A DNA stretch of 64,000 bases, taken from positions 1,169,501-1,233,500 of the forward strand of contig NZ_AP023360.1 in the NCBI RefSeq assembly GCF_018326265.1, given 5' to 3'. Shown here in pieces: positions 2 to 34,783 of the stretch. Under the pieces are notes generated by a model, which was not told the DNA's origin, searched no databases, and saw nothing but the letters and a program-made list of their open reading frames with translations. A program made the translations under genes and the position numbers. Each line of letters opens with the position of its first letter. Position 1 is the stretch's first letter. Origin of the DNA: Catellatospora sp. IY07-71. Its GTDB lineage: Bacteria > Actinomycetota > Actinomycetes > Mycobacteriales > Micromonosporaceae.

Positions 2-3000
2 GCGCGCAATGCGCCCGTCGGGGCGGGGCCACGTGGCCCACAGGCAGGCGGTCGCGCGGGTGACCCGCCCACCGGTGGCGGCCCGCGCAGCCCGCAGGCC
101 GATGGTTTCGTCGATGACGCGATTGCCGGTGACGGTCCGCGCAACCGTCCGGTGAGCGGCATGCCGCGTAACGCGCCCGTCAGCGGCGTGCCACGTAGCG
201 CTCCGGTCAGTGGCGGGCCCCGTAGCGCCCCCGTCAGCGGCGTGCCACGTAACGCGCCCGTCAGCGGTGTCCCGGTCAGCGGGGTGCCGATGCGGCCCGC
301 GGCCGAGCCGCGCAACCGGCCGGTCAGCGCCATGCCCGTCAGCTCGGTGCCGGTCAGCACCGTGCCGCTGAGCAGCCGTCCCCTGCCACCGCGCGGGACG
401 CCCCAGGCCGCGCCGCGCTCGGCCCCGCCGGACCCCGGCCGCCGCCAGACGCCGCCGAAGAGCCGCGGCAAGCAGGTCAAGCCGGCCGCGCCACCGAAGA
501 CCGGCAAGGACCGCGACGCCGCGCAGGAACTCGAGATCACCGAGATCGCCGGTCATCTCACGTTCACTCCGCACGCCGTCACCGCCTGGTACGTGCTGCC
601 CGAGGTGCGCTGGGCGTTCCGCCCCGACGCCGAACGCGAGGCGCTGCTCTCCGCCATCAGCGAGCAGTACGCCGGCCTCGCCGGCTTCCGCCTGCACCTG
701 CGGCGTACCACCCGGCCCTTCCCGGCCGACCAGTGGGCCGCACAGCTCGACCAGCTCACCGCCCGCCCGCTGCCGCCCGTGCCCGGCGCTCCCGGCTGGG
801 GCGACCACCTGGTCGCCGCCCAGCGCCACCTGCGCGAGATCAACCACAGCGAGGGGCAGACCTTCCTCGGCGTCACCTTCGCCCGCCGCGCCCTCGGCGA
901 CTCGTTCAGCGAGAAGCTGCTGCGCGCCTTCGGCAAGGGCACCGCCGACTCCGAACGCCGCAAGCTCGGCAAGCAGGTCGAACAGTTCGACGAGGTGCTC
1001 GCCGCGTTCGGCATGCGCGGCCAGCGCGCCGCCGCCGGCGAGCTGGAATGGCTGCTCTACCGCTCCGTCGCGCTCGGCATGAGCCCGCCCGACCTGATCG
1101 GCGCCGTCGGCCACGGCCGCTGGGACAGCGGCGACCTGCTCGCGCTCACCGAGCACATCGAGCGCTACCGCACCCCGTACGGCAGCACCGTCAAGCTCGT
1201 CAACCGGATGACCGGCGAAGAGCGGCACGTCGCCGTGCTGACCGTCGGCCGCATGGAGCCGCTCGACATCCCCGAGCGGCACGAGCCCTGGCTGCACTTC
1301 CACGAGCGCCTGCCCTGGCCCATGGAGCTGTCCTCGCGGGTCGACATCCTCGGACCCGGCGACAGCTTCCGCAACCTCGAACACCGGCTGCGCATGATCC
1401 GCTCGCAGCAGCTGGACTACCTCGAGCACGGCATGGACGCCCCGCCCGAGCTGGAGCGCCTGGCCAGCCGCGCCCTCGTCATGGGCGACGAGATGACCAC
1501 CGGCCTGCCCGTCGACTCCGCCCGCGCGCACGGCTGGCACCGCATCGCCGTCAGCGGCGCCAGCCGCGAGGAATGCCTCGAACGCGCCCGCTCCGTCGTC
1601 GCCACCTACAGCCGCGAGCTGCGCATCTCGCTGCAGCACCCCAAGCAGCAGGACCAGCTCGCCCGCGAGTTCATCCCCGGCGAGCCCGTCGCCAACACCG
1701 GCTACCTGCGCCGCATGCCGGTACGCCTGCTCGCCGCCGCGCTGCCCCAGGCCGCGTCCGTCGTCGGCGACCGCCGCGGCGACCTGATCGGCCGCACCGC
1801 CGGCACCTGCCGCCGCCCCGTCTTCCTCGACCCGCACTTCCCCATGGAGGTGCGTGAGCGCTCCGGCCTGTCGGTCATGGTCGCCGAACCCGGCGGTGGC
1901 AAGTCCACCCTGCTCGGCGCCATGGGCTACCTCAACGCCCGGCGCGGCGTGCAGGTCACCCTGCTCGACCCGTCCGGCCCGCTCGCCCGCCTGGCCACCA
2001 TGCCGGAGCTGCGGCCGTACTCGCGCGTGCTCAACCTGACCGGCGGCGAGCAGGGCACCCTCGCGCCGTACTCGCTCATCCCGACGCCGCAGCGGGCCGA
2101 GTTCCCGCCCGGCCCCAACGGCGACCGCGAATACGAGATCTCCGTCAGCAACGCCCGCGCCGAACGCCGCATGCTGGTGCAGGACATCTGCTCCATGCTC
2201 ATGCCGCCACAGGTCGCCCGCGAAGCCTCCACCGCGACGCTGCTGCGTCACGCGGTGCGCACCGTGCCCGCGGAGGAGACGGCCACCCTCGACGACGTCG
2301 TACGCTGCCTCGCCGGCATCGACGACACCGGCCGCGAGCTGGCCAACCTGCTGCTCGACACCGCCGAGATGCCGCTCGCCCTGCTGTTCTTCGGCAGCCC
2401 GCCCGGCGACCTGCTCAGCACCGACGCCGCGCTCACCGTCATCACCATGTCCGGGCTGCGCCTGCCCGACCTGAAGATCGAGCGCGAGTACTGGTCCGCC
2501 GAGGAGGCGCTCGCCCTGCCGATGCTGCACACCGCGCACCGGCTCGCCGTACGCCGCTGCTACTCGGGCGACATGCACCAGCGCAAGCTCGTCGGGCTCG
2601 ACGAGGCGCACTTCATGGAGGGGTGGCGGTCGGGACGGTCGTTCCTGGTCCGGCTCGCCCGGGACAGCCGCAAGTGGAACCTCGCGGCCCTCGTCGCGTC
2701 GCAGAACCCGAAGGACATCCTCGGGCTCGACGTGCAGAACCTCGTCTCCACCGTGTTCGTGGGGCGTATCGCGCAGGACCCGGAGATCGCGTCGGAGGCG
2801 CTGCGGCTGCTGCGCGTGCCGACCGACGTGGGGTATGAGGCCGTGCTCGCGTCGCTGTCCGCGCCCGACGCCAACAGCTCCGGGCGGCTCGGGTATCGCG
2901 AGTTCGTGCTGCGGGATGTCGACAGCCGGGTGCAGCGGGTGCGGGTCGACGTGTCGTACGTGGCGGGGCTGCTGGAGACGCTCGACACCACCCCGACGGG

Positions 3001-3031
3001 GCAGGCCGCCGGTCAGGGAGGCAAGCGGTGA
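2..3031 (+). CDS. VirB4/TraC-like secretion ATPase (5' partial)
   Basis: The frame is open from base 2 and repeat units are already present there, so the true start lies upstream; the GTG at 152 is probably internal. The product resembles VirB4/TraC ATPases, which energise type IV secretion or conjugation channels from the cytoplasmic side. Counted from 152, about 75 residues are tandem copies of a PVSG-V/M-P-R-N/S-A unit, then a Pro/Lys-rich linker. A P-loop (AEPGGGKST) lies near residue 580 and a Walker B (LVGLDEAH) near 814. The stop overlaps the next gene by four bases (GTGA), so it leads a coupled operon. Family is judged from motifs and gene order; chromosomal actinobacterial copies need not be self-transmissible. 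Confidence 0.85.
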   Translation, partial: ARNAPVGAGPRGPQAGGRAGDPPTGGGPRSPQADGFVDDAIAGDGPRNRPVSGMPRNAPVSGVPRSAPVSGGPRSAPVSGVPRNAPVSGVPVSGVPMRPAAEPRNRPVSAMPVSSVPVSTVPLSSRPLPPRGTPQAAPRSAPPDPGRRQTPPKSRGKQVKPAAPPKTGKDRDAAQELEITEIAGHLTFTPHAVTAWYVLPEVRWAFRPDAEREALLSAISEQYAGLAGFRLHLRRTTRPFPADQWAAQLDQLTARPLPPVPGAPGWGDHLVAAQRHLREINHSEGQTFLGVTFARRALGDSFSEKLLRAFGKGTADSERRKLGKQVEQFDEVLAAFGMRGQRAAAGELEWLLYRSVALGMSPPDLIGAVGHGRWDSGDLLALTEHIERYRTPYGSTVKLVNRMTGEERHVAVLTVGRMEPLDIPERHEPWLHFHERLPWPMELSSRVDILGPGDSFRNLEHRLRMIRSQQLDYLEHGMDAPPELERLASRALVMGDEMTTGLPVDSARAHGWHRIAVSGASREECLERARSVVATYSRELRISLQHPKQQDQLAREFIPGEPVANTGYLRRMPVRLLAAALPQAASVVGDRRGDLIGRTAGTCRRPVFLDPHFPMEVRERSGLSVMVAEPGGGKSTLLGAMGYLNARRGVQVTLLDPSGPLARLATMPELRPYSRVLNLTGGEQGTLAPYSLIPTPQRAEFPPGPNGDREYEISVSNARAERRMLVQDICSMLMPPQVAREASTATLLRHAVRTVPAEETATLDDVVRCLAGIDDTGRELANLLLDTAEMPLALLFFGSPPGDLLSTDAALTVITMSGLRLPDLKIEREYWSAEEALALPMLHTAHRLAVRRCYSGDMHQRKLVGLDEAHFMEGWRSGRSFLVRLARDSRKWNLAALVASQNPKDILGLDVQNLVSTVFVGRIAQDPEIASEALRLLRVPTDVGYEAVLASLSAPDANSSGRLGYREFVLRDVDSRVQRVRVDVSYVAGLLETLDTTPTGQAAGQGGKR

Positions 3032-4899
3032 GGCGGCTCGCTTCCGCGACCCTCGCCACGATGGTGCTGGCGCTGGGGACGCTGTTCGCGGCGCCGGTGC
3101 AGGCCGCGGCGCCGGCTGGGGTCGGGGCGGTGGCGCCCGGGGACAAGCTGTGCTCGCTGGAGGAGTGGACCAAGCGGGGGATCGACGAGTGCGTCGGGCG
3201 GCTGCAGGAGGTGAGCGCGGCACGTATCCAGTGCGTCAGCGCCCCCAACCCGGCCGCCCCGGACTCCGGCCTCGGCGGCTGGTTCGTCAGCAAGCCCACC
3301 TGGACCACCGGCGCCGACGGAAGCAGCTACCTGCTCTACAGCGAGTACGGATACGCCGGGTACGACTACACGACCTACGACATCAACTGCGTACAGACCG
3401 TCATGCACCCGGACTACAAGCTGGAGAACACCATCGCGAACGGCGAGTTCATGCTCGCCGCCGGCATCGTCGGTGTGTCGAACGCGCTTCGGGAGCGAGC
3501 CTGGGCGCCCAGCGAAATGTGGGGTTGGGCGGACCCGCTGGTAGAGAAGGCGACGACGGCGCTTTATAAGCAGGTCTTCAGCGTCTTCGGCGTGATCACG
3601 CTCGCCGTCATTGGCGTTTACCTCCTCTGGCGCTCACGCCAAGCCCAGATGTCCATGGCGCTCACGACCGTGGGTTGGGCGATCCTTGTAATGGTCGGTG
3701 TCACGGCGATCGCCAGTTGGCCGGTCCAGTCGGCCAAGGTTGCCGACGGCACGCTTGTGGGTGTACTCAGCGTGGTACACGAGGCTGTCGGGCCAAAGAG
3801 TCAGCCTGCTCCCACAACTCCATGTAGCAACCCCGAACCCGGTGCGTGCGAAGATCACCGGCCGCCTGCTGTCCGCGCAGGCGACACAGCTGTCCAGGCA
3901 CTGCTATACCGCAACTGGCTCCGTGGTTCGCTGGGCTCTGCGGATAGCGAAACTGCAAAGAAGTATGGTCCGGCCCTCTATCGCGCCAAGTCGCTCAGCT
4001 GGAGCGATGTCGAAGCGATCCAAGACGACTCAAGCCGACGCGATGGCATCATCCGAGCCAAGCAAAGCGACTGGATGAAGGTCGCCGAGCAGATCAAGAC
4101 TGAAGACCCGGAGGCGTACCAATACCTGCAGGGTACGAAGGGTATGGAGCGGATCGGGGCAGGGTTCGTCGCCATCCTTTCGGCGCTCAGCTACGCGGCC
4201 TTCGACGTAGTCGCCTCCCTCTTGGTTCTGTTGGGCTTCCTCATCATCCGGTGGGCGGTTATCGCTGCACCCGCGCTTGGCACGATCGGCATGCTGCGTC
4301 CCGCCAGTGCCGGCCTGCGCCGCCTGGTGAACTCGGTTCTGGCAGCATTGTTCAATGTATTGATCTTCGGAACCGGTGCCGCGGTATATCTGTTCGCAGT
4401 CGACCTAATCATGAGCACCTCGTCTCTGCCCGGCTGGCTGCAGGTGACGCTCGTCCTCCTCTGTGGTGTGGTCGGATGGATCCTGCTGCGCCCGTATCGC
4501 CGGATAACGCAGCTCGGCGGCGGTAGCAGTGGCACCTCTCTACTCACCGCACGGCCGTCTGCGGCACCTGCGAACTCCGCATCAACCGATCGCTCCCCAG
4601 CCACCATGGTCGCTCCTGGCAGCACGACCCCTCCCACCGTGCCCGAGGCCCGGCCGGAACTCGCGGTTACCGCCGAGGATCCGGCGAAGGTAATACGGGC
4701 GGAGGTGCGCGGCGGCGGCGACCCGGTTCGCTCTGAAGCCTGGCGCTCGCCAGACGTCCCGGAGGGGTCGCCAAGCTACTCGGTATACCGACCCGCGTCG
4801 GTGCCTCAGCAGGCAACCGCGCGAGCTGAAGCCCGCTCGGAGACCCCTTCGGATACGCCTGCACCGAGCCGATCAGAGACCTGGGCGGAACGGAGTTAG
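3028..4899 (+). CDS. TrbL/VirB6-like polytopic membrane protein
   Basis: The 623-residue protein starts at a GTG overlapping the VirB4 stop. Residues 1-26 look like a cleavable signal peptide ending AAPVQA. A Cys-containing extracellular segment follows, then hydrophobic segments near 185-205, 210-235, 375-400, 400-425, 430-460 and 465-490, and a Pro/Ser/Thr-rich cytoplasmic tail. This matches the TrbL/VirB6 membrane component of type IV secretion channels, which would form the inner-membrane pore with the VirB4 ATPase. Codon use changes inside the gene: bases up to about 3480 are strongly GC-biased, whereas the rest uses many A/T-ending codons, hinting at recombination. Confidence 0.75.
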   Translation: MRRLASATLATMVLALGTLFAAPVQAAAPAGVGAVAPGDKLCSLEEWTKRGIDECVGRLQEVSAARIQCVSAPNPAAPDSGLGGWFVSKPTWTTGADGSSYLLYSEYGYAGYDYTTYDINCVQTVMHPDYKLENTIANGEFMLAAGIVGVSNALRERAWAPSEMWGWADPLVEKATTALYKQVFSVFGVITLAVIGVYLLWRSRQAQMSMALTTVGWAILVMVGVTAIASWPVQSAKVADGTLVGVLSVVHEAVGPKSQPAPTTPCSNPEPGACEDHRPPAVRAGDTAVQALLYRNWLRGSLGSADSETAKKYGPALYRAKSLSWSDVEAIQDDSSRRDGIIRAKQSDWMKVAEQIKTEDPEAYQYLQGTKGMERIGAGFVAILSALSYAAFDVVASLLVLLGFLIIRWAVIAAPALGTIGMLRPASAGLRRLVNSVLAALFNVLIFGTGAAVYLFAVDLIMSTSSLPGWLQVTLVLLCGVVGWILLRPYRRITQLGGGSSGTSLLTARPSAAPANSASTDRSPATMVAPGSTTPPTVPEARPELAVTAEDPAKVIRAEVRGGGDPVRSEAWRSPDVPEGSPSYSVYRPASVPQQATARAEARSETPSDTPAPSRSETWAERS

Positions 4900-4901
4900 T
4901 C

Positions 4902-5426
4902 ATGCTGTCCCGAATCCCTCTACGGCCCCGCACCGTGGTGGCGCTCGGGTTGGCTGCGGTGGTAGTGATCATCGTCGGAGTCGGAAAGCTGCTAGGTGGG
5001 CCTGCTGATCCGGTCGGATTCGGTGCGCAGCCGCAGTCAGCACCCAGCCATGTCGACCCGACCCACGGCGACGACGGCGTGGTCGAGCATGACCCGACGC
5101 CGAGCCCGGTGATCCCGACCAACGGCGCGCAGGCGATCGCTGTGGCGACGAAGTTCGCCCAGCAATGGATCAAACACGACCGCAGCGCCGCCGCCTGGCT
5201 GGACGCCCTACGACCGCACAGCACCGACACCCTGGAATCGGAGCTCGACGGCGTTGACCCGGCCGGTGTCCCTGCAGACCGCATTACCGGAGACGCCCGC
5301 CTTGAGGCATTCGCGATCACATATGTCGAGGTAATCATCCCGATCGACGCGGGACTGCTGCGGCTGCGCATGGTTACCGAACAGGGCCGCTGGCTCGTCG
5401 ACGGCATCGACTGGGAGCGAGGATGA
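4902..5426 (+). CDS. VirB8-like single-pass membrane protein
   Basis: This is a 174-residue protein with one N-terminal membrane segment (about 12-30), a Pro/Asp-rich spacer, and a C-terminal alpha/beta region (about 70-174) compatible with the NTF2-like fold of VirB8/TcpC periplasmic domains. The fold is an inference from length, layout and operon position; no diagnostic motif is visible. A CGGAG site lies just upstream of the ATG inside the end of the previous gene, and the stop overlaps the next ATG, so it is translated within the secretion operon. In such systems the protein would sit in the membrane and bridge channel and wall components. Confidence 0.65.
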   Translation: MLSRIPLRPRTVVALGLAAVVVIIVGVGKLLGGPADPVGFGAQPQSAPSHVDPTHGDDGVVEHDPTPSPVIPTNGAQAIAVATKFAQQWIKHDRSAAAWLDALRPHSTDTLESELDGVDPAGVPADRITGDARLEAFAITYVEVIIPIDAGLLRLRMVTEQGRWLVDGIDWERG

Positions 5427-6568
5427 GTGCCCTTCCGACGCTTACCGCACCCCTACGCGACAAGGGTCGCAAGCTCGTACGACCGGGCCTTGTCATCGCG
5501 GTGACGGCCGCCCTCGGTGTGCTCTGCTGCGGTGGCGCAGTCGTCGCCGTGGTCTTCGGCGACCTGGCCACGAACACCTCTCCCCTAGCCAACGCAATGG
5601 GATGTGGCACCACGAAGACCATCAGCGTCACCGGCGAATTTCCCCGCATCGGACCGTACAGCGAAGAAAAGATCCGTAATGCCGCGATCGTCATCAAGAC
5701 CGGGCAGGAGCTCAAGGTGCCCCCGCGCGGCTGGGTGATCGCGGTCGCCACGGCGATGCAGGAAAGCAGCCTCACCAACCACGGGCACCTCGGTGAACGA
5801 AACGACCACGATTCGCTGGGACTGTTCCAGCAGCGCCCCAGCCAGGGTTGGGGCACCCCAGAACAGATCATGGATCCCGTCTACTCATCGACAAAGTTCT
5901 ACAAAAAACTCGTGAAGATCAAGCAGTGGGAGTCCCTACCGCTGACGGTCGCCGCGCAGCGCGTGCAGATCAGCGCATACCCGAACGCTTACGCCAAGCA
6001 CGAGCCGCTCGCGACGAGAATCGTCAACGAGTTGGCCGACGGAGCCGCCCGCGCGGTAGTAGTCGGAAACGAGCTGAAGTGTGCCGAGTTCGGCCAGATC
6101 GCTGCCTCGGGCTGGACTGCGCCGGTCGGTGCGAACGTGGTGTCCGGATACCGCACCGCGTCCCGTCCCGGCCACAACGGCGTCGACCTGGGCGCCGCCC
6201 GACACACACCGATTCGCGCGGCCTCAGCAGGGGTCGTCATCGTCAGCAAGTGCGATGTCGGCGGCTGTGACCGTGACGGGTCGTTGTCCACTCCAGGCTG
6301 CGGATGGTATGTAGACATTCTGCACGCAGGACAGGTCATCACCCGCTATTGCCACATGCAGAGCCGGCCGCTTGTCCGGGTAGGCGAACGGGTCAGCGCC
6401 GGGCAACAGATCGGATTCGTGGGCAATAGTGGGCACTCCTCCGGCCCGCATCTACACTTCCAGGTCCACCTCAACGGCGACCGCAGGTCGCGAACCGGAA
6501 CGATCGACCCAGTGCCGTTCATGGCCAGCAAGGGCGCTGCGCTGGGGAAGGAGAACGACTCGGCATGA
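5423..6568 (+). CDS. Transglycosylase-like/M23 endopeptidase wall hydrolase
   Basis: The ATG overlaps the preceding stop (ATGA). A signal anchor spans about residues 20-45. Residues ~80-195 resemble actinobacterial lytic transglycosylase/lysozyme-like domains, with the catalytic-type Glu in AMQESSL and a GLFQQRP motif. Residues ~235-370 form an M23 peptidase (LytM type) with zinc ligands in HNGVD and HLHF plus a GHSSGPH segment. Two wall-cutting activities in one exported protein fit the VirB1-like role of opening peptidoglycan for a secretion or conjugation channel. The 381-residue length suits this architecture. Cleavage specificity cannot be read from the sequence. Confidence 0.88.
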   Translation: MSALPTLTAPLRDKGRKLVRPGLVIAVTAALGVLCCGGAVVAVVFGDLATNTSPLANAMGCGTTKTISVTGEFPRIGPYSEEKIRNAAIVIKTGQELKVPPRGWVIAVATAMQESSLTNHGHLGERNDHDSLGLFQQRPSQGWGTPEQIMDPVYSSTKFYKKLVKIKQWESLPLTVAAQRVQISAYPNAYAKHEPLATRIVNELADGAARAVVVGNELKCAEFGQIAASGWTAPVGANVVSGYRTASRPGHNGVDLGAARHTPIRAASAGVVIVSKCDVGGCDRDGSLSTPGCGWYVDILHAGQVITRYCHMQSRPLVRVGERVSAGQQIGFVGNSGHSSGPHLHFQVHLNGDRRSRTGTIDPVPFMASKGAALGKENDSA

Positions 6569-7179
6569 CCGAGGCAGACTTCGCGGCCTGGGCGGCCGAG
6601 TGGCGCACTCCGCCAGCGCCGATTGTCCCGGTCCCCGCGCTGACGGTGATCAGCTCTGGCGGTGTGCTACGCGGTGCACGGGTGATGATCGGGCTGCCAG
6701 GACACGGTTGGCGAACCGGCATGCGCGGCGATTCGATGGTTCGGCAGGGAGCCCGCAGTCTGATCCCCGTTCTGTCGGAGGCCGAATGGTACCGCGCCGA
6801 GCGTGAACGGGTGGAGGTCTTCGCGGCTCTTGTGCCAGTCGAGCGCGTATGGGTCGAGACGATCAGCACAACGGCTGAGCGCACCCCCGACATCGACGGG
6901 CTGAACCTCGTTTCGCTGGATTCTCCCCCTACCAGGATGGCCGTGCCTGCGGAGACCATCGCCTCTCAGGCTACCGGTCAGCTGATGGGAAGGCGTCTGG
7001 TTCAGACGGGCGCTGACGGAGAGCAGCGAGGGCTTAGAGCCGTAACCGAGGCGCATACCGGCCCCGAGGGCACGGCGCAAGTGAGAGTGGCTCAGGAGCA
7101 CGATTGGTACCGTTGGGCAGCGACAGGTCAGGCCCCAGCGACACGAGCTGTGCCTTTGTCCGAACTCTGGCTGGAGTAA
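6565..7179 (+). CDS. Unknown protein, last gene of the secretion operon
   Basis: This 204-residue soluble protein begins at an ATG overlapping the previous stop. I recognise no domain. It has no signal peptide or membrane segment, is rich in Arg and Trp (WAAEW, GHGWR, SEAEWYRAERER), and lacks an obvious nucleotide-binding or catalytic motif. Tight coupling suggests a cytoplasmic accessory role in the type IV-like apparatus, but that is inference. Its TAA stop directly abuts the stop of the convergent gene at 7180. Codon use is less GC-biased than in the window as a whole. Confidence 0.7.
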   Translation: MTEADFAAWAAEWRTPPAPIVPVPALTVISSGGVLRGARVMIGLPGHGWRTGMRGDSMVRQGARSLIPVLSEAEWYRAERERVEVFAALVPVERVWVETISTTAERTPDIDGLNLVSLDSPPTRMAVPAETIASQATGQLMGRRLVQTGADGEQRGLRAVTEAHTGPEGTAQVRVAQEHDWYRWAATGQAPATRAVPLSELWLE

Positions 7180-7686
7180 CTAGCTAACGCTGCTGGGCGA
7201 CGGAGCCGGCAAAGGGGACTTCGCCGACGAGCACACTCGCCAGCCGTCCTGATCGGAGAGGCCGAACTGCCAGCGTTCACGACTCCGGCTCTCCACCGCA
7301 CCCTGTTTGCGAGCGATGATCACGAGGTCAGTCGTGGCGAGCTGCGTCTGGGATTCACCGACCAGATCGATTGCACCCCAACTGACTTCTATCTCAACGG
7401 AGAAGTCCTTTTCCCTCTGATCCAGTTCGTTCCGGAAGTTTCGAATTGCGTTCAGCTGGCCGCCGTCCTCGCAGCTGTAGAGCTCCACCCCAACCGGGTC
7501 CTTTTCCACCATAATCGCTCTGAGGTACTCATCAAGGACGACCTTGGGATTACTACGGTCGATCTTCGTAGCCTCGTGGTAGGTCAGCACTGCGGTGACT
7601 GCGCCCCCGATACCGGCGACAGCAAGGACCGCCGCAACCACCAGCAAGATCTTCCGCCACTTCGACCACCGCGACATGAAGCCCAT
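7180..7686 (-). CDS. Single-pass membrane protein with NTF2-like layout
   Basis: This 168-residue protein has one N-terminal membrane helix (about 14-36) and an extracytoplasmic domain with conserved-looking W/D positions and two Cys (ELYSCEDGG and WRVCSS) that could form a disulphide. The layout resembles small NTF2-like or Mce-associated-type proteins, though I cannot assign a family. The start could be the second Met (MSRW). It lies 66 bases downstream of the mycosin gene on the same strand and probably belongs to that ESX-like operon, suggesting an accessory role at the membrane. Confidence 0.65.
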   Translation of the reverse strand: MGFMSRWSKWRKILLVVAAVLAVAGIGGAVTAVLTYHEATKIDRSNPKVVLDEYLRAIMVEKDPVGVELYSCEDGGQLNAIRNFRNELDQREKDFSVEIEVSWGAIDLVGESQTQLATTDLVIIARKQGAVESRSRERWQFGLSDQDGWRVCSSAKSPLPAPSPSSVS

Positions 7687-7752
7687 TCTCGCGCACGGTC
7701 GGCCCGGCGCCAGTCCTCGCCGGCATGTCGCAACATCGACGCGCCAGATCGC

Positions 7753-8859
7753 TCACCGACTCGTGCGGCGCGAACGCATCCCGATCCCCAGGACGAAAAC
7801 GACGACGACCACCCCGACGACGATCGGGACAAGCACCCGCGTCCACGGCACGTTCGTTTCCGGGTCTGGCTTGCCGGATGCTGCCGTCGCCGAGCTACGA
7901 CTCGGTGATGCCGATGGCGACATCGGTGGAACGTTCGCGGTCAGCGCGGCCACGATATCGATCACTCCGTGCCCGTACTCGCCGTCCGGCCCGCGGAAGC
8001 CCTTGTCCACGGCGGTAGCCGTCAACCGGTGTGCGACCTCTCTCGCGGGCAAATCCGGATACCGGGATCGGATCAGAGCCGCCGCCCCAGCGACCAGAGC
8101 CGTCGAGTTCGAGGTTCCCGTTGCCGTAGCCCACCGTCCATCCACGTACGTGCTCGATATGTCGTCGCAGGGAGCGGCAAGCGTGGTCTCGGCTCCGGAT
8201 ACGGAGATCTCTGAGTGGTCGCCCTTCTGATCCACCCCACCCACTGCGACCACCCCGGGGATCGTCGCCAGGTAGCTCATTCGTGTCGATTCACTGCGGT
8301 TGCCGGTCGCCACGACTACGACGATGTCCGCAGCAATCGCCCGCTCGACGGCCGTCCGAAGAACAGTGTCCTCGCTGCCTCCGACGACCATGCGAGACAG
8401 CGAGATGACGTCGACCTTGCGCTCAGTTGCGAATTCGATGCCGCGTACCAGGCTTCCACCCACGCTCGCATAAGTAACCGACGTGCGGATACTCATGATC
8501 TTCGCGGCGGGTGCCATCCCTGTGACCCGGCCGTGAGCTGCAATCAAGCCGGCCATCGCAGTGCCGTGTCCATCGCGATCAGCCAAACCGTCGCCAGGGC
8601 CCTCATCGGTGAAGTCTGCACCTGCAATCACCGAACCCACGAGATCCGGGTGATCTGCATCGACCCCGGAATCCACCAAGGCAACCGTCACTCCAGCGCC
8701 CTCGGTGATGCGGTGCGCTCCAGACGTCTTCAAGAACGAGTGGAACCACTGGCCGTCCCTGATTTCATCACGGCCAGCCGCCGCCGTCGGCCAGCCGACG
8801 ACGGCCGCCACAAGCACCGCCACGGTGCCGAACCTGACGATGGGACCGAACGCGCTCAT
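7753..8859 (-). CDS. Mycosin-type subtilisin protease with C-terminal anchor
   Basis: This S8 serine protease has 368 residues: a signal peptide (about 1-29), catalytic Asp in LVDSGVDADHPDL (~63), His in DGHGTAMAGL (~98) and Ser in GTSNSTALVAG (~250), a Ser/Pro linker and a C-terminal membrane helix (~340-362) followed by basic residues. That order is the mycosin (MycP) layout found in ESX/type VII secretion, where the protease faces outward and acts on secreted substrates or stabilises the complex. It overlaps the upstream PPE-like gene by four bases (ATGA), so enzyme and probable substrate are translationally coupled. No ecc gene lies beside it; the ecc genes at 27907-33491 have their own mycosin. 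Confidence 0.88.
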   Translation of the reverse strand: MSAFGPIVRFGTVAVLVAAVVGWPTAAAGRDEIRDGQWFHSFLKTSGAHRITEGAGVTVALVDSGVDADHPDLVGSVIAGADFTDEGPGDGLADRDGHGTAMAGLIAAHGRVTGMAPAAKIMSIRTSVTYASVGGSLVRGIEFATERKVDVISLSRMVVGGSEDTVLRTAVERAIAADIVVVVATGNRSESTRMSYLATIPGVVAVGGVDQKGDHSEISVSGAETTLAAPCDDISSTYVDGRWATATGTSNSTALVAGAAALIRSRYPDLPAREVAHRLTATAVDKGFRGPDGEYGHGVIDIVAALTANVPPMSPSASPSRSSATAASGKPDPETNVPWTRVLVPIVVGVVVVVFVLGIGMRSRRTSR

Positions 8860-10079
8860 GTGGTTCCTCTGCGAATCGTCACGATCGGTGCTTGCTCACC
8901 GGGTCCATTGTCAGAACGCCACGGCATGGCCGTCCCCGCGAACCACTCCCGAAACTCATCTGGATCCGGGTCGATGGACGGCAAAGGGGGAGCGTCCCCC
9001 GGCCCGGGTTCGATCAGCGCAGGTCCGCCCTTCTGCACCTCCCAACGTGTGGCTGCCACTGATCGAGAAAGTCCGTTCCCGCCCGCATTCGACGTATTCC
9101 CACCCATCTGCATGGGCATGGGCATCATGCCGGGTGGTGTGCCCCCGGAAGGGGCGAAGCCTTGACCGGCCGTCCTCGGCGTCGCGGGCATCGACACGAC
9201 ATAACCAGACGATCCGCTTCCGTTAGGCATGACGAATGCACCACCGCCCGGCGCATGGGGGCTTCCTGGGAAGATCGGCAATGCCGACGCCGTACCGGCT
9301 GAGAGGCCTGGCACTGGTTGCCCGGCGGGTGCCGGCCAGACTTCCTCAGGCGTCTCAACGCCCGCCGGAGGATTGTCGGCTGAAGGTGGTGTAACAACGT
9401 CGGCCGGTGACGGTCCTTTGGCGTTGACGACGCGGGGCGGCTTCTCCAAGCTACCCGTTCTCTTGGTCAGATCCTCGATCCGAGGAAGCGTGCTGACCTG
9501 CGCGTCGGTTCGAGCTGGCACGACAATGTTCGTTCGGTAGTCGCCGATCATGGCGTCAGCGGTCGACATGATCTCGCGAGCACGATTGTTGAGGGCGTCA
9601 GCTTTGGCCCGCCATCCCCTCGAGTCCGTTCTAGTGATGCCAAGCCATTGCGCAGCTATGGGCTCCATGGCACGCCGCGCCGACTTCATGGTGTCGAGCA
9701 CGCCGTCGACACCGCGTGCGGTCGTCGAAGCGGCCAATGCATCAGCGCGTAGTGCGCCGATCAACCAATCGATCTTCCCGAGCGCGGCGACCCCGGCCGG
9801 AGTCTGGCCGCCCGACCAGGCGTCCGCAAGCCGTTCCCGCAGCCGGACGAGTTCATCGGCCTGCGCGTTCAACGCCTCGGCCTGCCGAGCGATGACTCGG
9901 GCTTGCTCCCAGGTCTCTTCGTGGTCAATACAGCCGAGACTGTCCCACATACGGGGCACGTCGTAGTCGTTCCAGTCGACGGGTGGCGCCTCCCACTGAG
10001 ACTGCGGCGGCAGTCCCGCCGCCCCCGAGGGCCTGCGGGCGACGAACGTGTGCAGCACGTCGGGATCTGAACCGGCCAT
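8856..10079 (-). CDS. PPE/EspB-like ESX substrate with WxG motif
   Basis: This protein has 407 residues. The N-terminal half is helical and Ala/Arg/Glu-rich, with a WSG motif at residues 88-90 followed by a second long helical stretch to about 220, as in WXG100/PPE/EspB-type type VII substrates. The C-terminal half is low-complexity, Pro/Gly/Met-rich, ending in a short acidic/aromatic segment. It starts at an ATG overlapping the stop of the upstream YxxxD protein (TGATG) and overlaps the downstream mycosin start. In known systems one partner carries WxG and the other YxxxD/E; here the two are adjacent. Function beyond being a probable secreted partner is unknown. Confidence 0.7.
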   Translation of the reverse strand: MAGSDPDVLHTFVARRPSGAAGLPPQSQWEAPPVDWNDYDVPRMWDSLGCIDHEETWEQARVIARQAEALNAQADELVRLRERLADAWSGGQTPAGVAALGKIDWLIGALRADALAASTTARGVDGVLDTMKSARRAMEPIAAQWLGITRTDSRGWRAKADALNNRAREIMSTADAMIGDYRTNIVVPARTDAQVSTLPRIEDLTKRTGSLEKPPRVVNAKGPSPADVVTPPSADNPPAGVETPEEVWPAPAGQPVPGLSAGTASALPIFPGSPHAPGGGAFVMPNGSGSSGYVVSMPATPRTAGQGFAPSGGTPPGMMPMPMQMGGNTSNAGGNGLSRSVAATRWEVQKGGPALIEPGPGDAPPLPSIDPDPDEFREWFAGTAMPWRSDNGPGEQAPIVTIRRGTT

Positions 10080-10489
10080 CAGGCGTTCTCTCCCCGACCC
10101 TGCTGGTGACGCAGCTCAGCATGCTCGGCGCGCTGCGCCGCCGCCGCGATCTCGCGATCGATCACCTTGAGAGCGGCTGCGGCCAGATCGTCCGCTTCGG
10201 TGTAGTTGACCAGGACCTGCTCAAGCGCGGCGGCAAACGCCTGCCCGAGCCTCAACTGCTGCTCGGCGTTGTCGCGGTGGCGCCGCAGGGCGGCCCAGAG
10301 CGCATTGCGGGCGGCCCGGGCCTCACCACTGGGCGAAAACGTGCCGAAGAGCACGCCTCGCTCCAGTTCGCGGGCGAACCCGCCCAGCCCGGACGCCAGT
10401 CCGGTGTCAGCTTGGATCCGCAGATCTGCGGAGATCCGCCGAACCTCGACCAAATCCACGGCCAGCTGTTTTATCGGCGCTTCTGCCAT
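10079..10489 (-). CDS. Small helical ESX partner with YxxxD signal
   Basis: The start is the ATG at 10489, preceded by a strong GGGAGGTGAG ribosome site; a longer open frame reaching 10849 lacks such support. The 136-residue product is almost wholly helical with no signal peptide or membrane segment. YTEAD at residues 96-100 fits the YxxxD/E secretion signal of type VII substrates (EsxB, PE, EspC types). With the adjacent WxG protein it probably forms a heterodimer exported by an ESX machine. It is the first gene of the protease-containing operon. Assignment rests on motif, size and gene pairing. Confidence 0.7.
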   Translation of the reverse strand: MAEAPIKQLAVDLVEVRRISADLRIQADTGLASGLGGFARELERGVLFGTFSPSGEARAARNALWAALRRHRDNAEQQLRLGQAFAAALEQVLVNYTEADDLAAAALKVIDREIAAAAQRAEHAELRHQQGRGENA

Positions 10490-11283: not shown

Positions 11284-13236
11284 GTGCCCGGTTTGAATGC
11301 GCGGATCGACCAGGCCGCGAGCCTGCACCGGCACGCGTCGGCGGTGGCGCAGGCGGCCGCGTCCGCGTTGGACGGTTATCTTCCACCGCCCCGCACCGAC
11401 CTGGCCGAACAGCAGGCGCTGGCCGAGCGGCTGCGTGACGCGGCGGCCCGGCTGACGCCCGGCTGGCTGGGCACGCCGCTGGACGGGGTGCCGGCCGGCC
11501 TGGCGCTTGGCGAGCAGCGCCGTCCGGAGTTCGTGCGGGTCGGCACGGCGGCCGCGCAGGAGGATGCCGCCTTCCCCGCCGTGGTGCCGTTGCTGGGGAC
11601 GGGCCATCTGACGTTCAGCGCCGATTCCCGCGACCCCCGGGTCGCGGGGGTGCTGCGGGCGATCCTGCTGCGGCTGCTCGCGACGGCTCCGTCGGGCACG
11701 CTGGTGGTCCGCGCGGTGGACGCGGTCGGCGGGGCGCTGTTCGCGCCGTTCGGGGCGCTGGCCGATGCGGGTCTGATGCCGCCGCCGGTGACCGACCGGG
11801 CGGGTCTGCAGGCGGTGCTGGCGGAGGCGGAGCACTGGGTGCGCCCGAGCCGGCCGGAGGCGCAGCGGCGCCCGGCGGCTCGGCCGCGGCGCCGGGACTG
11901 CACGATGCTGCTGCTGATCGCGGCGCTCCCGTCGGCGGTGGACGGCTCGGACCTGGCCCGGATCACGGCGCTGGCGCAGGCCGGTCCGGCGACGGGGCTG
12001 CATCTGATCGTGGCGGGCTGGCCGCCGCCGCCGCTGACGCCGGACACGGCGCAGCCCGCGGCTCAGCAGCCGTTGCCGATGAGTACGCAGATCGCCCTGC
12101 GCAACCCGTTCGCGCTGCTGGGCGGCGCGCCGTTCACGGTGCTGGCCCAGGCCGAGCGGCGCCCGGCGGCGGGTGGCGCGCCGAGCCCGACGGCTTCGTG
12201 GCCGGGGCTTTCGGTGCCGGTGCGGCTCGACCCGGACCCGCCGGCGGAGCTGGTGCAGCGGGTGTGCCGCGAGCTGGCCGAGCGTTACGTGCAGTCGGGG
12301 CAGGTGCACCTGATGGACCTGCTGCCGGATCCGGACCACTGGTGGGCGGAGTCGTCGGCGGCGGGGTTGTCGACGACGGCGGGGCTGGCCGGGGAGACGC
12401 CGATCTCGCTGGTGTTCGCCGACCTGACGCCGCACTGGCTGATCGGGGGCCGGGCGGGGGGCGGCAAGTCGGCGTTCCTGGCGAATGTCCTGTACGGGTT
12501 GTGCACCCGCTACGACCCGGACGAGCTGGCGCTGTATCTGCTGGATTTCAAGCCGGGGCGGGGGCTGGCCCGGTTCGCGCCGGGGCCGGACGATCCGGCC
12601 TGGCTGCCGCACGCCCGGGTGGTGGGGCTGGAGTCGGGGCGTGAACACGGCCTGGCGGTGCTGCGGGAGCTGGACGGCGAGCTGGCCCGCCGGGAGGAGC
12701 TGTGGCGCGAGCTGCAGGTGAGCCGGTTCGTGCAGGCGCGGGAGCACCGGCAGCTGCCGCGGCTGGTGTGTGTGCTGGACGAGTTCCCGGTGCTGCTGTC
12801 GGGTGCCGATCCGATCGCGGCGGAGGCGCTGGGCCTGCTGGAGTCGATCGGGCGGCGGGGGCGCGGCTGCGGCGTACACCTGATTCTGGTTTCGCAGACG
12901 GTGCGCGGCATCGAGGCGCTGCATGCGCGGCGGGATTCGCTGTTCGGCCAGGTGCCGGTGCGGGTGGCGCTGCCGGGCGGCGGGGACGCGCTGGAGGCGA
13001 CGAACGACGCGGCGGCGACGCTGCCGCTGGGCTGCGCGGTGGTCAACACCGCGGGCGGCCTGGGCGGGCCGCGGGGCGCCACGCGCGGCCATGAGAAGAC
13101 GGTCCGGTTCCCGGACCCGGACGCCGACGCGCAGGTGCTGTCGGCGCTGCGGCAGCGCCTGTGGCAGGCCCGCGACCCGGACTCCGATCCGCCGCTGGTC
13201 CTCAGCACGGCTGAGCTGAGCCAGGGCCCGGCGTGA
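11284..13236 (+). CDS. FtsK/SpoIIIE-domain ATPase
   Basis: The start is chosen at GTG 11284, which has GGAGG seven bases upstream; a frame from 11206 lacks one. The product has 650 residues. The N-terminal ~180 residues are Ala-rich and probably helical; the C-terminal half is an FtsK/SpoIIIE-type motor domain with P-loop (GGRAGGGKSAF, ~390) and Walker B (LVCVLDEF, ~497). There are no FtsK membrane helices and no gamma DNA-reading domain, so this is not the septal translocase itself. It could move DNA or protein with the membrane protein encoded next. It is distinct from the three-ATPase eccC at 27907. Confidence 0.8.
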   Translation: MPGLNARIDQAASLHRHASAVAQAAASALDGYLPPPRTDLAEQQALAERLRDAAARLTPGWLGTPLDGVPAGLALGEQRRPEFVRVGTAAAQEDAAFPAVVPLLGTGHLTFSADSRDPRVAGVLRAILLRLLATAPSGTLVVRAVDAVGGALFAPFGALADAGLMPPPVTDRAGLQAVLAEAEHWVRPSRPEAQRRPAARPRRRDCTMLLLIAALPSAVDGSDLARITALAQAGPATGLHLIVAGWPPPPLTPDTAQPAAQQPLPMSTQIALRNPFALLGGAPFTVLAQAERRPAAGGAPSPTASWPGLSVPVRLDPDPPAELVQRVCRELAERYVQSGQVHLMDLLPDPDHWWAESSAAGLSTTAGLAGETPISLVFADLTPHWLIGGRAGGGKSAFLANVLYGLCTRYDPDELALYLLDFKPGRGLARFAPGPDDPAWLPHARVVGLESGREHGLAVLRELDGELARREELWRELQVSRFVQAREHRQLPRLVCVLDEFPVLLSGADPIAAEALGLLESIGRRGRGCGVHLILVSQTVRGIEALHARRDSLFGQVPVRVALPGGGDALEATNDAAATLPLGCAVVNTAGGLGGPRGATRGHEKTVRFPDPDADAQVLSALRQRLWQARDPDSDPPLVLSTAELSQGPA

Positions 13237-27906: not shown

Positions 27907-30900
27907 TCAGTACGCCGGCAGCTCCGCGAGCTGGACGAGCCGGCCGCCGCGGCGGGTGATGAGGCGGCCGCGGCCGGGAGGCATGCGCTCGTACTTGATG
28001 CGGGCGCCGAACGGGGCGGTCGCGCTGCTCTCCGCCGACAGCATCAGGAACGGCGCACCCGCCGAGGCCAGCCTCGTCAGCGCCACGTCGCTCGACGAGC
28101 GGTAGCCGCCCCAGTTCGCGTTGGACGACGTGATCAGGTGCAGACCGACGTCGCGGGCCTGGAACAGGAACTCGCTCAGCGGCTCCAGCGGGTGGCCCAT
28201 CGACGCCCCGACCACGATGTCGTAGTCGTCGATGATCAGGAAGAACTCGCCGCGCCCGGCCAGCCAGGGCCGCCGCGGGATGTCCTGCGGGCGCACGTCG
28301 TCCGGCGGGCGCCGCTCGTCCATCTTCTGCCGGATCGCCTCGGCGTAGTCGCGCAGCTGGGCGGGGTTGCTCAGGTACGCGAGCTGGTGCTCGGTGGTCA
28401 CCGCGCCGAGCAGGCTGCGCTTCGGGTCCATGATGATCATCTTTGCCTGGTCCGGCGTGTACCGGCGGGCGATCGAGGTGGCGATCTGCCGCAGCAGGGT
28501 CGACTTGCCGCTCTCGCTCTCCCCGAACGCGCTGAGGTGCACGTCGGCGAAGAAGTCGACGGTCGCCGGGGTCAGGTCGTCGGCGATGCCGATCGGCAGC
28601 GTCCACTCCCCGCCCGTCTCCAGGTTCATCCGCTCGTACGCGTACACCGTGGGCAGCATGCGCACCCGCGGCGCGGGCTGGCCCGTCCAGTGCTTCGTGA
28701 TGTGCTGCAGCAGCGCGTCGCGGTCGCCGACGGCGTCCATGTCCGGCCGCAGCGCCAGCGTGAACAGGCCGTCCACGGTGACACCGAACCCGGGGCGGGC
28801 CGGCACCTGCGGGGCGATCTTGCGGACCCGGCAGATGCTGTCGCTGGCGTCGCCCAGCTTCAGCTCCAGCTTGCTGCCGAACTGGTCGGCGATCGCGGGC
28901 CGGAAGTCGCGCCAGCGCAGCGTGGAGGCGATCAGGTGCACGCCGTACGCCAGGCCCCGGGTGGCGAAGTCGGTGAGCACCGGCTCCAGGTCGTCGTAGT
29001 TCTCGCGCAGCGTGGTCCAGCCGTCCACGACCAGGAACACGTCGCCGTACGGGTCGTCGGTGAACCGGCCCGCCGCGCGCAGCCTGCGGTAGGCCGCCAT
29101 CGACTCGATGCCGTGCTCGGCGAACCGGGCCTCGCGGGCGTTGAGCAGCTGCGCCACCTCGCTCACGGTGCGCCGCACCATCAGCGCGTCCTGCCGGCCC
29201 GCGACGCCGCCGACGTGCGGCAGGTCGCGCAGCGCGCCCAGCGAGCCGCCGCCGAAGTCCAGGCAGTACACCTGCACCTCCTGCGGGGTGTGGGTGAGCG
29301 CCAGGCCGGTGATGATGGTGCGCAGCAGCGTGGACTTGCCGCTCTGGCCGCCGCCCGCGAGCGCCACGTGCCCCGCCGCGCCGTCGGCCAGCCGCAGCCA
29401 CTGCAGGTCGCGCAGCTGCTGGGCGGGCTTGTCGATGATGGCGACCGGCACCCGCAGCGCGCCGCGCAGCTCCGGGTTGGCGACGGTGAGGCCCCGGCCC
29501 TCGACCAGGCCGAGCTGCCCGAAGGCGAGGTCCAGCGGGTCGGAGATGTCCAGCGGCGGCAGCCACACCTGGTGCGCGGGCGGGCCCTGGCCCACCATGC
29601 GCTCGATCATGACGTCCATCAGGCTCTCGCCCGGCTTGACGTCCCAGTTGACCTCGGGCTCGGCGTTGGCGGGCTTCTTCGGCACCGGCACGAAGTGGTT
29701 GCTGAAGTCGTACACGACCTGGCGGCCGTCGTCCTTGCGGCGGGTCGCGGTCTCCCCCGCCCGCTTGAACGAGCCGGACACGTACGCGCCCTTGAACCGC
29801 TGCAGCGGCTCCGAGCCGAACTTCAGGTAGCCGTGGCCGGGCGCCTTGGGCAGGTCGTACGCGTCGCCGACGCCGAGCACCGCGCGCGACTCCATCGCGG
29901 AGAAGGTGCGCAGGCCGATCCGGTACGACAGGTGCGTGTCCAGGCCGCGCAGCCGGCCCTCCTCCAGCCGCTGGCTGGCCAGCAGCAGGTGCATGCCGAT
30001 GGACCGGCCGACCCGGCCGATCTGCACGAAGATCTCGATGAAGTCCGGGTTGGCGGTGAGCAGCTCGGAGAACTCGTCGCAGACGATGAACAGCGAGGCC
30101 AGCGGGGCGATCGCGGCGCCGCCCGCGCGCGCCTTCTCGTAGTCCTTGAGGTTGGCGAAGTTGCCCGCCGCCCGCAGCAGCTCCTGGCGGCGCAGCACCT
30201 CGCCGGTGATCGCGTCGCCCATGCGGTTGACCAGGTGGCTCTCGCCCTCCAGGTTGGTGATGACCGCGGAGGTGTGCGGCAGCCGGTCCAGCGAGGCGAA
30301 CGTCGCGCCGCCCTTGAAGTCGACCAGCACGAAGTTGAGCTGCTCCGACGAGTGCGTCGCGGCCAGGCCGAGCACCATCGTGCGCAGCAGCTCGGACTTG
30401 CCGGAGCCGGTCGCGCCGACGAGCAGGCCGTGCGGGCCCATGCCGTCCTGCGCCGACTCCTTGATGTCCAGCTCGACCGGCGAGCCGTCCGGGCCCACGC
30501 CCAGCGGCGTGCGCAGCATGTTGCGGCTGCTGCGCGGCGACCATCCGTACGCCACGTCGAAGCGCTCCGGGTCGGGGATGCCGAGCAGGTCGGCCAGGCC
30601 CTTCTCGGTGGTCATCGCGGTGGAGCTGGTGACCGTGGTGGCGGACAGCCGCAGCGGGGCCAGCCGCCGGGCCAGCGCCTCGGCCTCGACGACGCCGAGC
30701 CGGTCCGCCGCGCCGACCTCGGCGACGGAGGTCGCGGTGGTGGTGTGCAGCTCGCGCTCGCGGCCGCGCACTTCGAGCGTCAGCATGCCGCGCTCCAGCA
30801 GGCGCGGCGGCGCGGTGTCCAGGTCCAGGATGGTCATCCCGGACAGGCCCTCCGGCACGGCCAGCAGGTTCGCCCCGGCCATGTCGGCGCCGTCGAGCAC

Positions 30901-31905: not shown

Positions 31906-32045
31906 AGCGATTGCCCTCCCCACGACCATCGACCGCCCGTCATGCTAAGTCATGTGAGAACCGCCCGCGTTCGGCCGCCTGTGACAAACATGTCCGCGAT
32001 CGATGCGGGGTGACGCGTTCCTCCGGAACGTGGTAGACGTACCGG

Positions 32046-33491: not shown

Positions 33492-33538
33492 CCGGGTTTC
33501 TTTGCCCGCGCGGGTGAGCGTGTGAGAATGGCGGAACT

Positions 33539-34783
33539 GTGCCTGGGTTCCGGTCATTCCGCCGCAGCGCCGTCCCGCGTAAGAACGCGACGGCGCTGCC
33601 TCGCGTGACCGCGGCGCTGGCGCTGGCCGTGGCGGGCAGCATGGCCGCGACGACCCCGCCGCGGACGCCCCTGGCGGACACCGCCGGGCTGCGGGCCGAG
33701 GTCGGCGCGCAGCGGGTCTCCCGCGACGCCGAGCGCAGCGGGCAGTGGCAGCTGACCACCCTCCGCGCCACCCGCGCCTGGGATCTGGCCACCGGCGACG
33801 GCGTCGTCGTCGCCGTGATCGACTCGGGGGTCGCGCCGCACCCGGACCTGACCGGCCGCGTGCTCTCCGGGCTGGACCTGGTGGACACGACCGGCAACGG
33901 CAGCAACGACCAGGTCGGGCACGGCACCACGGTGGCCGCGCTGATCGCCGGCCAGGGTGACGGCCGGCACGGGGTGGCCGGGCTGGCGCCGCGCGCGAAG
34001 ATCCTTCCGGTGCGCGTGCTCGACGCGGAGAACCGGTACGACGACGCGCGGGTGGTCGCCGAGGCGGTCCGCTGGGCCGTCGACCACGACGCGAAGGTGA
34101 TCAACCTCTCTCTCGGCGGCCCGGTGAGCAGCGAAGCGCTGGCCGAGGCGATCGACTACGCGTTCGCCCGCGACGTGGTGGTGGTGGCCTGCGTCGGCAA
34201 CGTGAGCGCGGGCGGCAGCACCGAGATCTGGTATCCGGCCCGCGAACCCGGTGTGCTCGCGGTGACCGCGATCGCCCCCGGCCAGCGCCACCAGCGCTGG
34301 CAGGGCTCCCTCACCGGTGAGCAGGCCGTGCTCGCCGCGCCGGGCACCGACCTGCTCGGCGCGAAGCCGGGCGGCTACTGGCGGGTGCAGGGCACGAGTT
34401 TCGCCGCGCCGCTGGTCTCGGCGACCGCCGCGCTGGTCCGCTCCCGCTTCCCGGGCATGTCCGCCGCGGACGTGGTGCAGCGGCTGATCAGCACCGCACA
34501 GGACCTCGGCCCGGCCGGGCGCGACGACGAGTTCGGCTTCGGCCTGGTCGACCCGGTCGCGGCGCTGACCGCCGAGGTGACCCCGGTCCGGGCCAACTCG
34601 CTGGACGTCCTGCCGCCGCCGGGACGCGCCGGCTTCGGGCCCGCGCCCGAGCCGTCCCCGGCCGCCGCGGCCACGCCCACCCCGGCCGCCGGCACCCGGC
34701 CGGCGCCGACTCCGCAGCGGGTCAACGGCGGGCTGCAGCTGGCCCTCGACGGCGCCCCGCTGCTCGCGCTTCCTCTTTCCTGA
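33539..34783 (+). CDS. mycP: Mycosin-type S8 protease lacking a clear C-terminal anchor
   Basis: This subtilisin-family protease has 414 residues, starting at GTG 33539. A signal peptide or signal anchor lies near 20-40. The catalytic triad is Asp in VIDSGVAPHPDL (~97), His in VGHGTTVAAL (~127) and Ser in GTSFAAPLVSATAAL (~287). The C-terminal ~70 residues are Pro/Ala-rich and end in a short weakly hydrophobic stretch (LALDGAPLLALPLS), without the membrane helix that normally anchors mycosins. Position after eccD supports a role in ESX secretion. Unlike the mycosin at 7753, it might be released or bound through its N-terminus. Its stop abuts the marP stop. Confidence 0.85.
   Translation: MPGFRSFRRSAVPRKNATALPRVTAALALAVAGSMAATTPPRTPLADTAGLRAEVGAQRVSRDAERSGQWQLTTLRATRAWDLATGDGVVVAVIDSGVAPHPDLTGRVLSGLDLVDTTGNGSNDQVGHGTTVAALIAGQGDGRHGVAGLAPRAKILPVRVLDAENRYDDARVVAEAVRWAVDHDAKVINLSLGGPVSSEALAEAIDYAFARDVVVVACVGNVSAGGSTEIWYPAREPGVLAVTAIAPGQRHQRWQGSLTGEQAVLAAPGTDLLGAKPGGYWRVQGTSFAAPLVSATAALVRSRFPGMSAADVVQRLISTAQDLGPAGRDDEFGFGLVDPVAALTAEVTPVRANSLDVLPPPGRAGFGPAPEPSPAAAATPTPAAGTRPAPTPQRVNGGLQLALDGAPLLALPLS

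What the first reader, a model, noticed from the sequence alone, without database searches (positions are those of the whole stretch)
7180..10489. Self-contained ESX-like substrate pair with its own mycosin beside a type IV-like operon
A YxxxD protein, a WxG PPE/EspB-like protein and an anchored mycosin are translationally coupled (TGATG and ATGA overlaps), with a small membrane protein downstream. No ecc gene is adjacent, and the convergent neighbour is a VirB4/VirB6/VirB8/wall-hydrolase operon. A protease-plus-substrate cassette paired with a conjugation-like machine is not a standard ESX layout and could be a hybrid or hijacking secretion system.
Basis: partly seen in the sequence, partly recalled or inferred. 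Interest (0 to 1): 0.72.

Follow-up and report, generated by a model that had tools for sequence, protein, structure and literature searches.

The report
Detached ESX substrate–mycosin gene cassette
Three coupled genes encode a pair of helical proteins that look like type VII (ESX) secretion cargo plus their own membrane-anchored protease; the trio is one copy of a family scattered through Micromonosporaceae chromosomes, and its place beside a type IV-like operon is recurrent but optional, so a hybrid secretion machine is not supported.

Summary
In detail: esx-like (10489-10079), PPE-like (10079-8856) and mycosin-like (8859-7753) genes overlap as TGATG and ATGA. YxxxD is invariant in 20 relatives, the PPE-like model matches PPE41/PPE4/PPE15 best in the PDB, and the protease keeps its catalytic residues. 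Two corrections: the small membrane protein (7686-7180) belongs to the type IV-like locus, where it occurs without the trio; and a soluble FtsK/EccC-like ATPase (11284-13236) lies next door, although it is not a true EccC.

The hybrid reading is not supported. The VirB4 operon is a core locus of the family. The trio beside it is intact in 9 of 35 such loci, partial in 2, a relic in 2, inverted in three genera, and found elsewhere in many genomes. A related trio sits beside maf in this genome and other Micromonosporaceae, and next to eccC in another family. This genome has one EccC, 17 kb away.

Best explanation: a detached ESX substrate pair with its own mycosin, exported in trans (route inferred). 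Recurrent adjacency in five or six genera is unexplained (one ancestral insertion not rejected). Mycobacterial plasmids needing both T4SS and T7SS exist, so coupling stays possible (about 8%).

The parts
10079..10489 (-). esx/PE-like helical protein (136 aa) with invariant Y96xxxD100 signal motif; no signal peptide or TM segment
   Evidence: translation; alignment of 20; AlphaFold helices 13-44 and 55-130, mean pLDDT 83; Foldseek hits include EsxB, PE25, EsxEF
8856..10079 (-). PPE-like substrate (407 aa): helical N-domain ~34-190 with invariant W36 and W88, then a low-confidence Pro/Gly-rich tail with conserved C-terminal motifs (W346..G351..I356, PWR, VTIRRG)
   Evidence: model; PPE41/PPE4/PPE15 are Foldseek ranks 1-9, best E 2.2e-3, prob 0.99-1.00; no Pfam hit above cut-off
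7753..8859 (-). membrane-anchored mycosin-like S8 protease (368 aa), N-terminal hydrophobic stretch + S8 domain + one C-terminal TM segment, catalytic D63/H98/S250 and N187 intact
   Evidence: TIGR03921 253.4 bits, below the curated 278.75; alignment; hydropathy; PDB MycP1 matched
7180..7686 (-). one-TM protein (Rv0361-family-like, weak); belongs to the type IV-like locus, not to the cassette
   Evidence: NF051431, 27.4 bits vs 37; present beside P9 in nearly all family loci without the trio, not detected beside trios elsewhere
152..3031 (+). VirB4-like ATPase (the ORF begins upstream of the window, about 720 bases before base 1); neighbour, not part of the cassette
   Evidence: AAA_10 6.2e-20; TcpF 2.4e-18, below cut-off
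3028..7179 (+). rest of the type IV-like operon: VirB6-like (3028-4899), one-TM protein in the VirB8 position (4902-5426), M23 wall hydrolase with an SLT-like region (5423-6568), family-specific P9 (6565-7179)
   Evidence: conserved gene order in about 35 family loci
11284..13236 (+). soluble single-domain FtsK/SpoIIIE (EccC/EssC-like) ATPase with Walker motifs and no TM segment; conserved at the locus with or without the cassette
   Evidence: (EccCa 1.6e-22, 80 bits vs 509 cut-off)
27907..31929 (-). EccC, the only one over the family cut-off in this genome; candidate motor for export of the pair
   Evidence: (EccCa 952 bits, EccCb 702 bits)
32046..34783 (+). EccD (32046-33491) and the ESX-locus mycosin (33605-34783)
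   Evidence: both over cut-off; locus conserved in 8 other genera

Best explanation
The three genes are a detached type VII (ESX) substrate module. The YxxxD protein and the PPE-like protein would form a PE/PPE-type helical heterodimer, made in stoichiometric coupling by overlapping reading frames. The YxxxD signal is recognised in trans by the genome's single EccC, in the eccC-eccD-mycP locus 17 kb away (eccB lies in a second locus), and the pair is exported without a signal peptide. The dedicated mycosin sits in the membrane with its protease domain outside, either capping the ESX complex or trimming the tail of the PPE-like protein, as MycP1 does for EspB. The module is one of several copies: a native-composition copy beside maf, seen across the sampled Micromonosporaceae, and dispersed copies poor in GC3 at several fixed sites. 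The VirB4 operon is an older, separate core locus whose flank is one recurrent home of the module. Shown: gene content, coupling, motifs, folds, catalytic residues, copy distribution, losses. Inferred: heterodimer, secretion, use of EccC, cleavage.
For: YxxxD invariant in 20 sequences at 28-68% identity. PPE chains hold Foldseek ranks 1-9 with probability 0.99-1.00. No signal peptide or TM segment in either substrate. Catalytic residues invariant. The same coupled trio at over 20 loci and in diverged form in further genera. A family copy at the maf locus with GC3 0.90-0.96 in this genome and similar copies in other genera. In an outside family (G175) the order is eccC - YRDGD protein - PPE - mycP. 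One EccC over cut-off in the genome. EccB, two WXG100 proteins and a mycosin at a second locus. Operon intact where the trio is absent, partial or relic. Literature: MycP1 cleaves EspB (PMC5156307); the PE partner carries the C-terminal signal (PMC11217815).
Against: Foldseek E-values are above 0.001 (2.2e-3 for the PPE-like model; about 1 for the esx model). Neither substrate passes a Pfam cut-off, and the mycosin scores below the TIGR03921 cut-off. No complex could be modelled. The trio lies beside the VirB4 operon in several genera, more often than at most other sites. No secretion data exist.
Confidence: 0.75

Rival explanations
1. A chromosomal T7/4 hybrid: the VirB4/VirB6/hydrolase machine, perhaps driven by the EccC-like ATPase at 11284-13236, exports or needs the pair, as mycobacterial pRAW-type plasmids need both T4SS and T7SS.
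For: The trio is intact or partial beside the operon in up to six genera, including G039, G080, G061 and G015. An EccC-like ATPase flanks it on the other side. Other WXG-type genes occupy the same interval in G012, G022 and G042 (weak hits). The operon and the ESX locus lie about 20-33 kb apart in the sampled genera. Precedent: PMC13037476, PMC12803027, PMC5452490.
Against: 22 of 35 surveyed family operons have no trio; most trios are elsewhere; orientation is not conserved; relics show loss without loss of the operon; trio homologues occur where the P9 marker is not found; no relaxase or coupling protein in the operon.
Confidence: 0.08
2. The interval between the membrane gene and the FtsK-like gene is a neutral insertion hotspot, or the ancestral site of the dispersed cassettes, from which copies moved; adjacency has no functional meaning. 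This concerns the location only and can hold together with the best explanation.
For: Unrelated genes also fill the interval in other genera. Monophyly of the operon-linked trios is not rejected (AU p 0.087; p 0.326 for mycosins alone). One gain with three moves is as parsimonious as three gains (tree).
Against: Three operon-linked clades appear in the free tree, and other WXG-type genes also lie in the interval, which a purely neutral hotspot would not favour.
Confidence: 0.6
3. The S8 protease and helical pair act outside ESX, for example in signalling or defence.
For: PADLOC subtilase and IetS models match the protease weakly.
Against: All 20 aligned relatives match the T7SS mycosin model; no ATPase or effector partner is conserved with the trio; homologues sit next to eccC in another family.
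Confidence: 0.05

Closest known systems
Mycobacterial PE/PPE pairs and EspB with MycP1 (T7SSa/ESX)
   Same: Helical YxxxD partner plus PPE-fold partner with a long tail; subtilisin-like protease with a C-terminal membrane anchor; mycosin next to substrate genes
   Different: No PE or PPE motifs; no EspG/EccA seen nearby; sequence profiles do not reach cut-offs; substrate and protease genes are detached from the ecc genes and occur in several copies per genome
Stand-alone esxA-esxB-mycP cluster of Micromonospora lupini Lupac 08 (PMC4182475)
   Same: The same three-gene composition without ecc genes, in a genome that also has an eccC-eccD-mycP cluster
   Different: Not analysed there beyond listing; probably corresponds to the maf-linked family copy, but the identity was not tested here
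T7/4SS of mycobacterial conjugative plasmids (pRAW, pMAH135, pCBMA213_2)
   Same: T7SS and VirB4/VirB8-like genes in one neighbourhood
   Different: Plasmid-borne with a full ecc set, and relaxase and VirD4 in pRAW-type plasmids; here chromosomal, family-wide, without relaxase or coupling protein in the operon, and the T7 trio is optional
pCW3/TcpF-type Gram-positive conjugation operons
   Same: VirB4-like ATPase closest to TcpF, VirB6-like protein, wall hydrolase
   Different: No relaxase or mobile-element genes in the operon; conserved chromosomal position across the family

Membership tests
T7SS PE/PPE-type substrate pair | YxxxD/E export motif on the smaller helical partner | tested here: met
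   Y96 and D100 invariant in 20 sequences; YxxxD also present in the eccC-linked homologues
T7SS PE/PPE-type substrate pair | PPE fold in the larger partner | tested here: met
   Foldseek ranks 1-9 are PPE41, PPE4 and PPE15, prob 0.99-1.00, best E 2.2e-3
T7SS PE/PPE-type substrate pair | Pfam PPE or WXG100 profile over cut-off | tested here: not met
   Window protein 10.2 bits for WXG100 vs 27.3; 3 of 24 relatives match PPE, best E 0.0011. Resemblance is at fold and motif level; membership in the Pfam families is not claimed
T7SS PE/PPE-type substrate pair | WxG turn motif | tested here: inconclusive
   W88 invariant between two helices, G not conserved
T7SS PE/PPE-type substrate pair | ESX-dependent secretion as a heterodimer | not testable with these tools
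   Needs an experiment; only single chains could be modelled
Mycosin (TIGR03921 equivalog) | Score over the curated cut-off | tested here: not met
   253.4 vs 278.75 bits; called mycosin-like
Mycosin (TIGR03921 equivalog) | Intact S8 catalytic residues, N-terminal export signal and C-terminal TM anchor | tested here: met
Complete ESX locus | eccB, eccC, eccD adjacent to the substrates | tested here: not met
   eccC and eccD 17 kb away, eccB near 1.82 Mb
Conjugative T4SS | VirB4-like ATPase with VirB6-like and wall-hydrolase partners | tested here: met
   scores below the named equivalog cut-offs
Conjugative T4SS | Relaxase and VirD4-type coupling protein | tested here: inconclusive
   No such gene recognised in the operon or its immediate flanks; a genome-wide search was not run. 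The adjacent FtsK-like ATPase is closer to EccC/EssC than to any coupling-protein model
pRAW-type T7/4 hybrid | T4 and T7 genes inherited together | tested here: not met
   Trio beside the operon intact in 9, partial in 2, relic in 2 of 35 family loci. The ecc locus itself does keep a roughly constant distance of about 20-33 kb in the genera checked

The most novel reading that the evidence does not exclude
A chromosomal T7/4 hybrid in Micromonosporaceae: the VirB4 operon, the EccC-like ATPase beside it and the nearby eccC-eccD-mycP locus act together, and interchangeable substrate-mycosin cassettes plug into this machine at a preferred docking site.
Probability: 0.08. Interest if true: 0.8.

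Novelty: new variant of a known kind. Interest (0 to 1): 0.42.

Why it matters
If right, non-mycobacterial actinomycetes carry several exchangeable ESX substrate cassettes, each with its own mycosin, that must share one EccC. That makes a standing question testable outside pathogens: whether the mycosin is a fixed part of the ESX complex or a substrate-specific, swappable subunit. It also puts PPE-fold substrates, which one review calls unique to mycobacteria (PMC12209268, abstract), into soil Micromonosporaceae.

Tried and rejected
Hybrid by co-inheritance: rejected by the survey. My first view that adjacency was a one-off was also wrong: HMM re-scanning found it in further genera.

Shared low GC3 as a sign of joint acquisition: rejected, because the operon genes are equally low in GC3 in relatives without the trio.

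The membrane gene as part of the cassette: rejected.

Single versus repeated insertion at the operon: left open (AU p 0.326 and 0.087).

Defence-system reading: weak hits only.

Failed or uninformative: the genome search with VirB4 and VirB6 gave no usable answer, so the small P9 protein served as operon marker. The first genome-contig query had no conserved stretch. The solved-structure profile searches with the two substrates gave only chance-level hits. The PHROGs scan added only generic protease and endolysin hits.
Full report
What is in the sequence. On the minus strand three genes run 10489-10079, 10079-8856 and 8859-7753. The first pair overlaps as TGATG and the second as ATGA. They encode a 136-aa helical protein, a 407-aa protein and a 368-aa S8 protease. 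The protease matches the T7SS mycosin model with 253.4 bits, below the curated 278.75. A one-TM protein (7686-7180) follows after 66 bases. It ends next to the stop of a convergent operon that starts upstream of the window and includes VirB4-like, VirB6-like, one-TM, wall-hydrolase and P9 genes.

Identity of the trio. YxxxD is invariant in 20 aligned relatives of the small protein. Its model is a helical hairpin (helices 13-44 and 55-130). Among its Foldseek hits are EsxB, PE25 and EsxEF, though no E-value is significant. The PPE-like protein has a confident helical domain at about 34-190 and a low-confidence tail. Its first nine PDB matches are PPE41, PPE4 and PPE15 (best E 2.2e-3, probability 0.99-1.00), with EspB further down. 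W36 and W88 are invariant, but the G of WxG is not; the tail carries conserved C-terminal motifs. The protease keeps D63, H98, N187 and S250 and has an N-terminal hydrophobic stretch and one C-terminal TM segment, while the two substrates have neither. Pfam profiles do not reach cut-off for either substrate. The resemblance is therefore at the level of motif and fold.

Where else it occurs. In 151 family genomes a single-protein search finds the PPE-like protein in 65, many of them weak N-terminal matches. The loci inspected carry the coupled trio in the same order, at several chromosomal sites. The named relatives of the close form are Catellatospora, Rhizocola, Allorhizocola and Catelliglobosispora. 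The window's genome has three trios: this one, one at 521-523 kb, and one next to maf at about 2.09 Mb. The maf-linked copy has native GC3 (0.90-0.96 in this genome) and is found at the same site in the other Micromonosporaceae genomes inspected. The dispersed copies of the Catellatospora group have GC3 of roughly 0.53-0.85. In one genome of another family (G175) the order is eccC, a YRDGD protein, a PPE-like gene and a mycosin, with eccD and further genes alongside; a second such genome (G208) has the YxxxD and PPE-like genes next to eccC. This links the trio to ESX loci. A short cluster of esxA, esxB and mycP was listed for Micromonospora lupini (PMC4182475).

The machine. The genome has one EccC over the family cut-off, at 27907-31929 of the window, beside EccD and a mycosin over cut-off. 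EccB, two WXG100 proteins and another mycosin lie near 1.82 Mb. By established knowledge of T7SSa, the PE partner carries the C-terminal signal (PMC11217815). MycP1 cleaves EspB, and MycP1 as a whole is needed for ESX-1 secretion (PMC5156307). The simplest mechanism is export of the pair in trans by this ESX, with the private mycosin as cap or processing protease. Export, EccC use and cleavage are inferred, not shown.

The type IV-like neighbour. The operon, the convergent one-TM gene and a soluble single-domain FtsK/SpoIIIE ATPase at 11284-13236 form a conserved locus across most genera sampled. That ATPase is most similar to EccC/EssC (80 bits against a 509-bit cut-off) and has no TM segment. 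Of 35 family loci with the operon, 9 have an intact trio beside the one-TM gene, 2 a partial one, 2 a relic of the esx start, and 22 none detected, one of which ends at a contig edge. The relics (in G129 and G087) are short and supported at E 2.8e-4 and 0.002, with DNA-level similarity around them. Orientation is reversed in three genera. Operon genes are low in GC3 with or without the trio, so shared composition is not evidence of joint arrival. P9, the operon marker, was not found in eight genomes of other families that gave PPE-profile matches.

What remains open. The trio is beside the operon, intact, in five genera and in six counting fragments. The free tree gives three operon-linked clades, but one clade is not rejected (p 0.326 on mycosins; p 0.087 on the concatenation). 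Three gains, or one gain and three moves, are equally short on that tree. Other WXG-type genes lie in the same interval in G012, G022 and G042, by weak hits. The operon and the eccC-eccD-mycP locus keep about 20-33 kb between them in the genera checked, with housekeeping genes such as ppa, dacB and ftsH between. Mycobacterial conjugative plasmids do need both T4SS and T7SS (PMC13037476, PMC12803027, PMC5452490). A functional coupling is therefore possible, but nothing here supports it over common location.

Verdict. A new variant of a known kind: an ESX substrate pair and mycosin detached from ecc genes and dispersed. Interest is moderate (0.42). The hybrid reading is kept as the novel case at 8%.

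Noticed in passing
window 11284-13236: Soluble single-domain FtsK/SpoIIIE ATPase closest to EccC/EssC, conserved across Micromonosporaceae beside the VirB4 operon; function unknown.
   Followed up: partly
window 27907-34783 and 152-7179: The eccC-eccD-mycP locus and the VirB4 operon keep a distance of about 20-33 kb in the genera checked.
   Followed up: partly
L140:8051-11054: Trio with native GC3 next to maf, at the same site in other Micromonosporaceae genomes inspected; probably the vertically inherited copy.
   Followed up: partly
L149:7341-10803: eccB, two WXG100 genes and a mycosin lie far from eccC and eccD: the ESX core genes of this genome are split between two loci.
   Followed up: partly
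L085:9154-10264 and L092:8999-10485 (oriented with P9 on +): Other WXG-type or YxxxD genes (weak Pfam hits) fill the same interval beside the VirB4 operon in two further genera.
   Followed up: no
L058:3818-8038: A 1406-aa ORF lies just upstream of a dispersed trio; similar proteins flank the trio in L057 and L060. It looks like a WXG-type polymorphic protein, not tested.
   Followed up: no
L054:9338-10561: The PPE-like gene of G051 has a premature stop near its 3' end (384 aa instead of about 407).
   Followed up: no
L083:9175-11925 (oriented with P9 on +): In G015 only the esx gene of the trio remains beside the operon, followed by ORFs that look transposase-like.
   Followed up: no
window 3028-7686: Operon genes from VirB6 onward have GC3 0.71-0.78 while VirB4 has 0.95; the same contrast is seen in relatives. 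Unexplained.
   Followed up: partly
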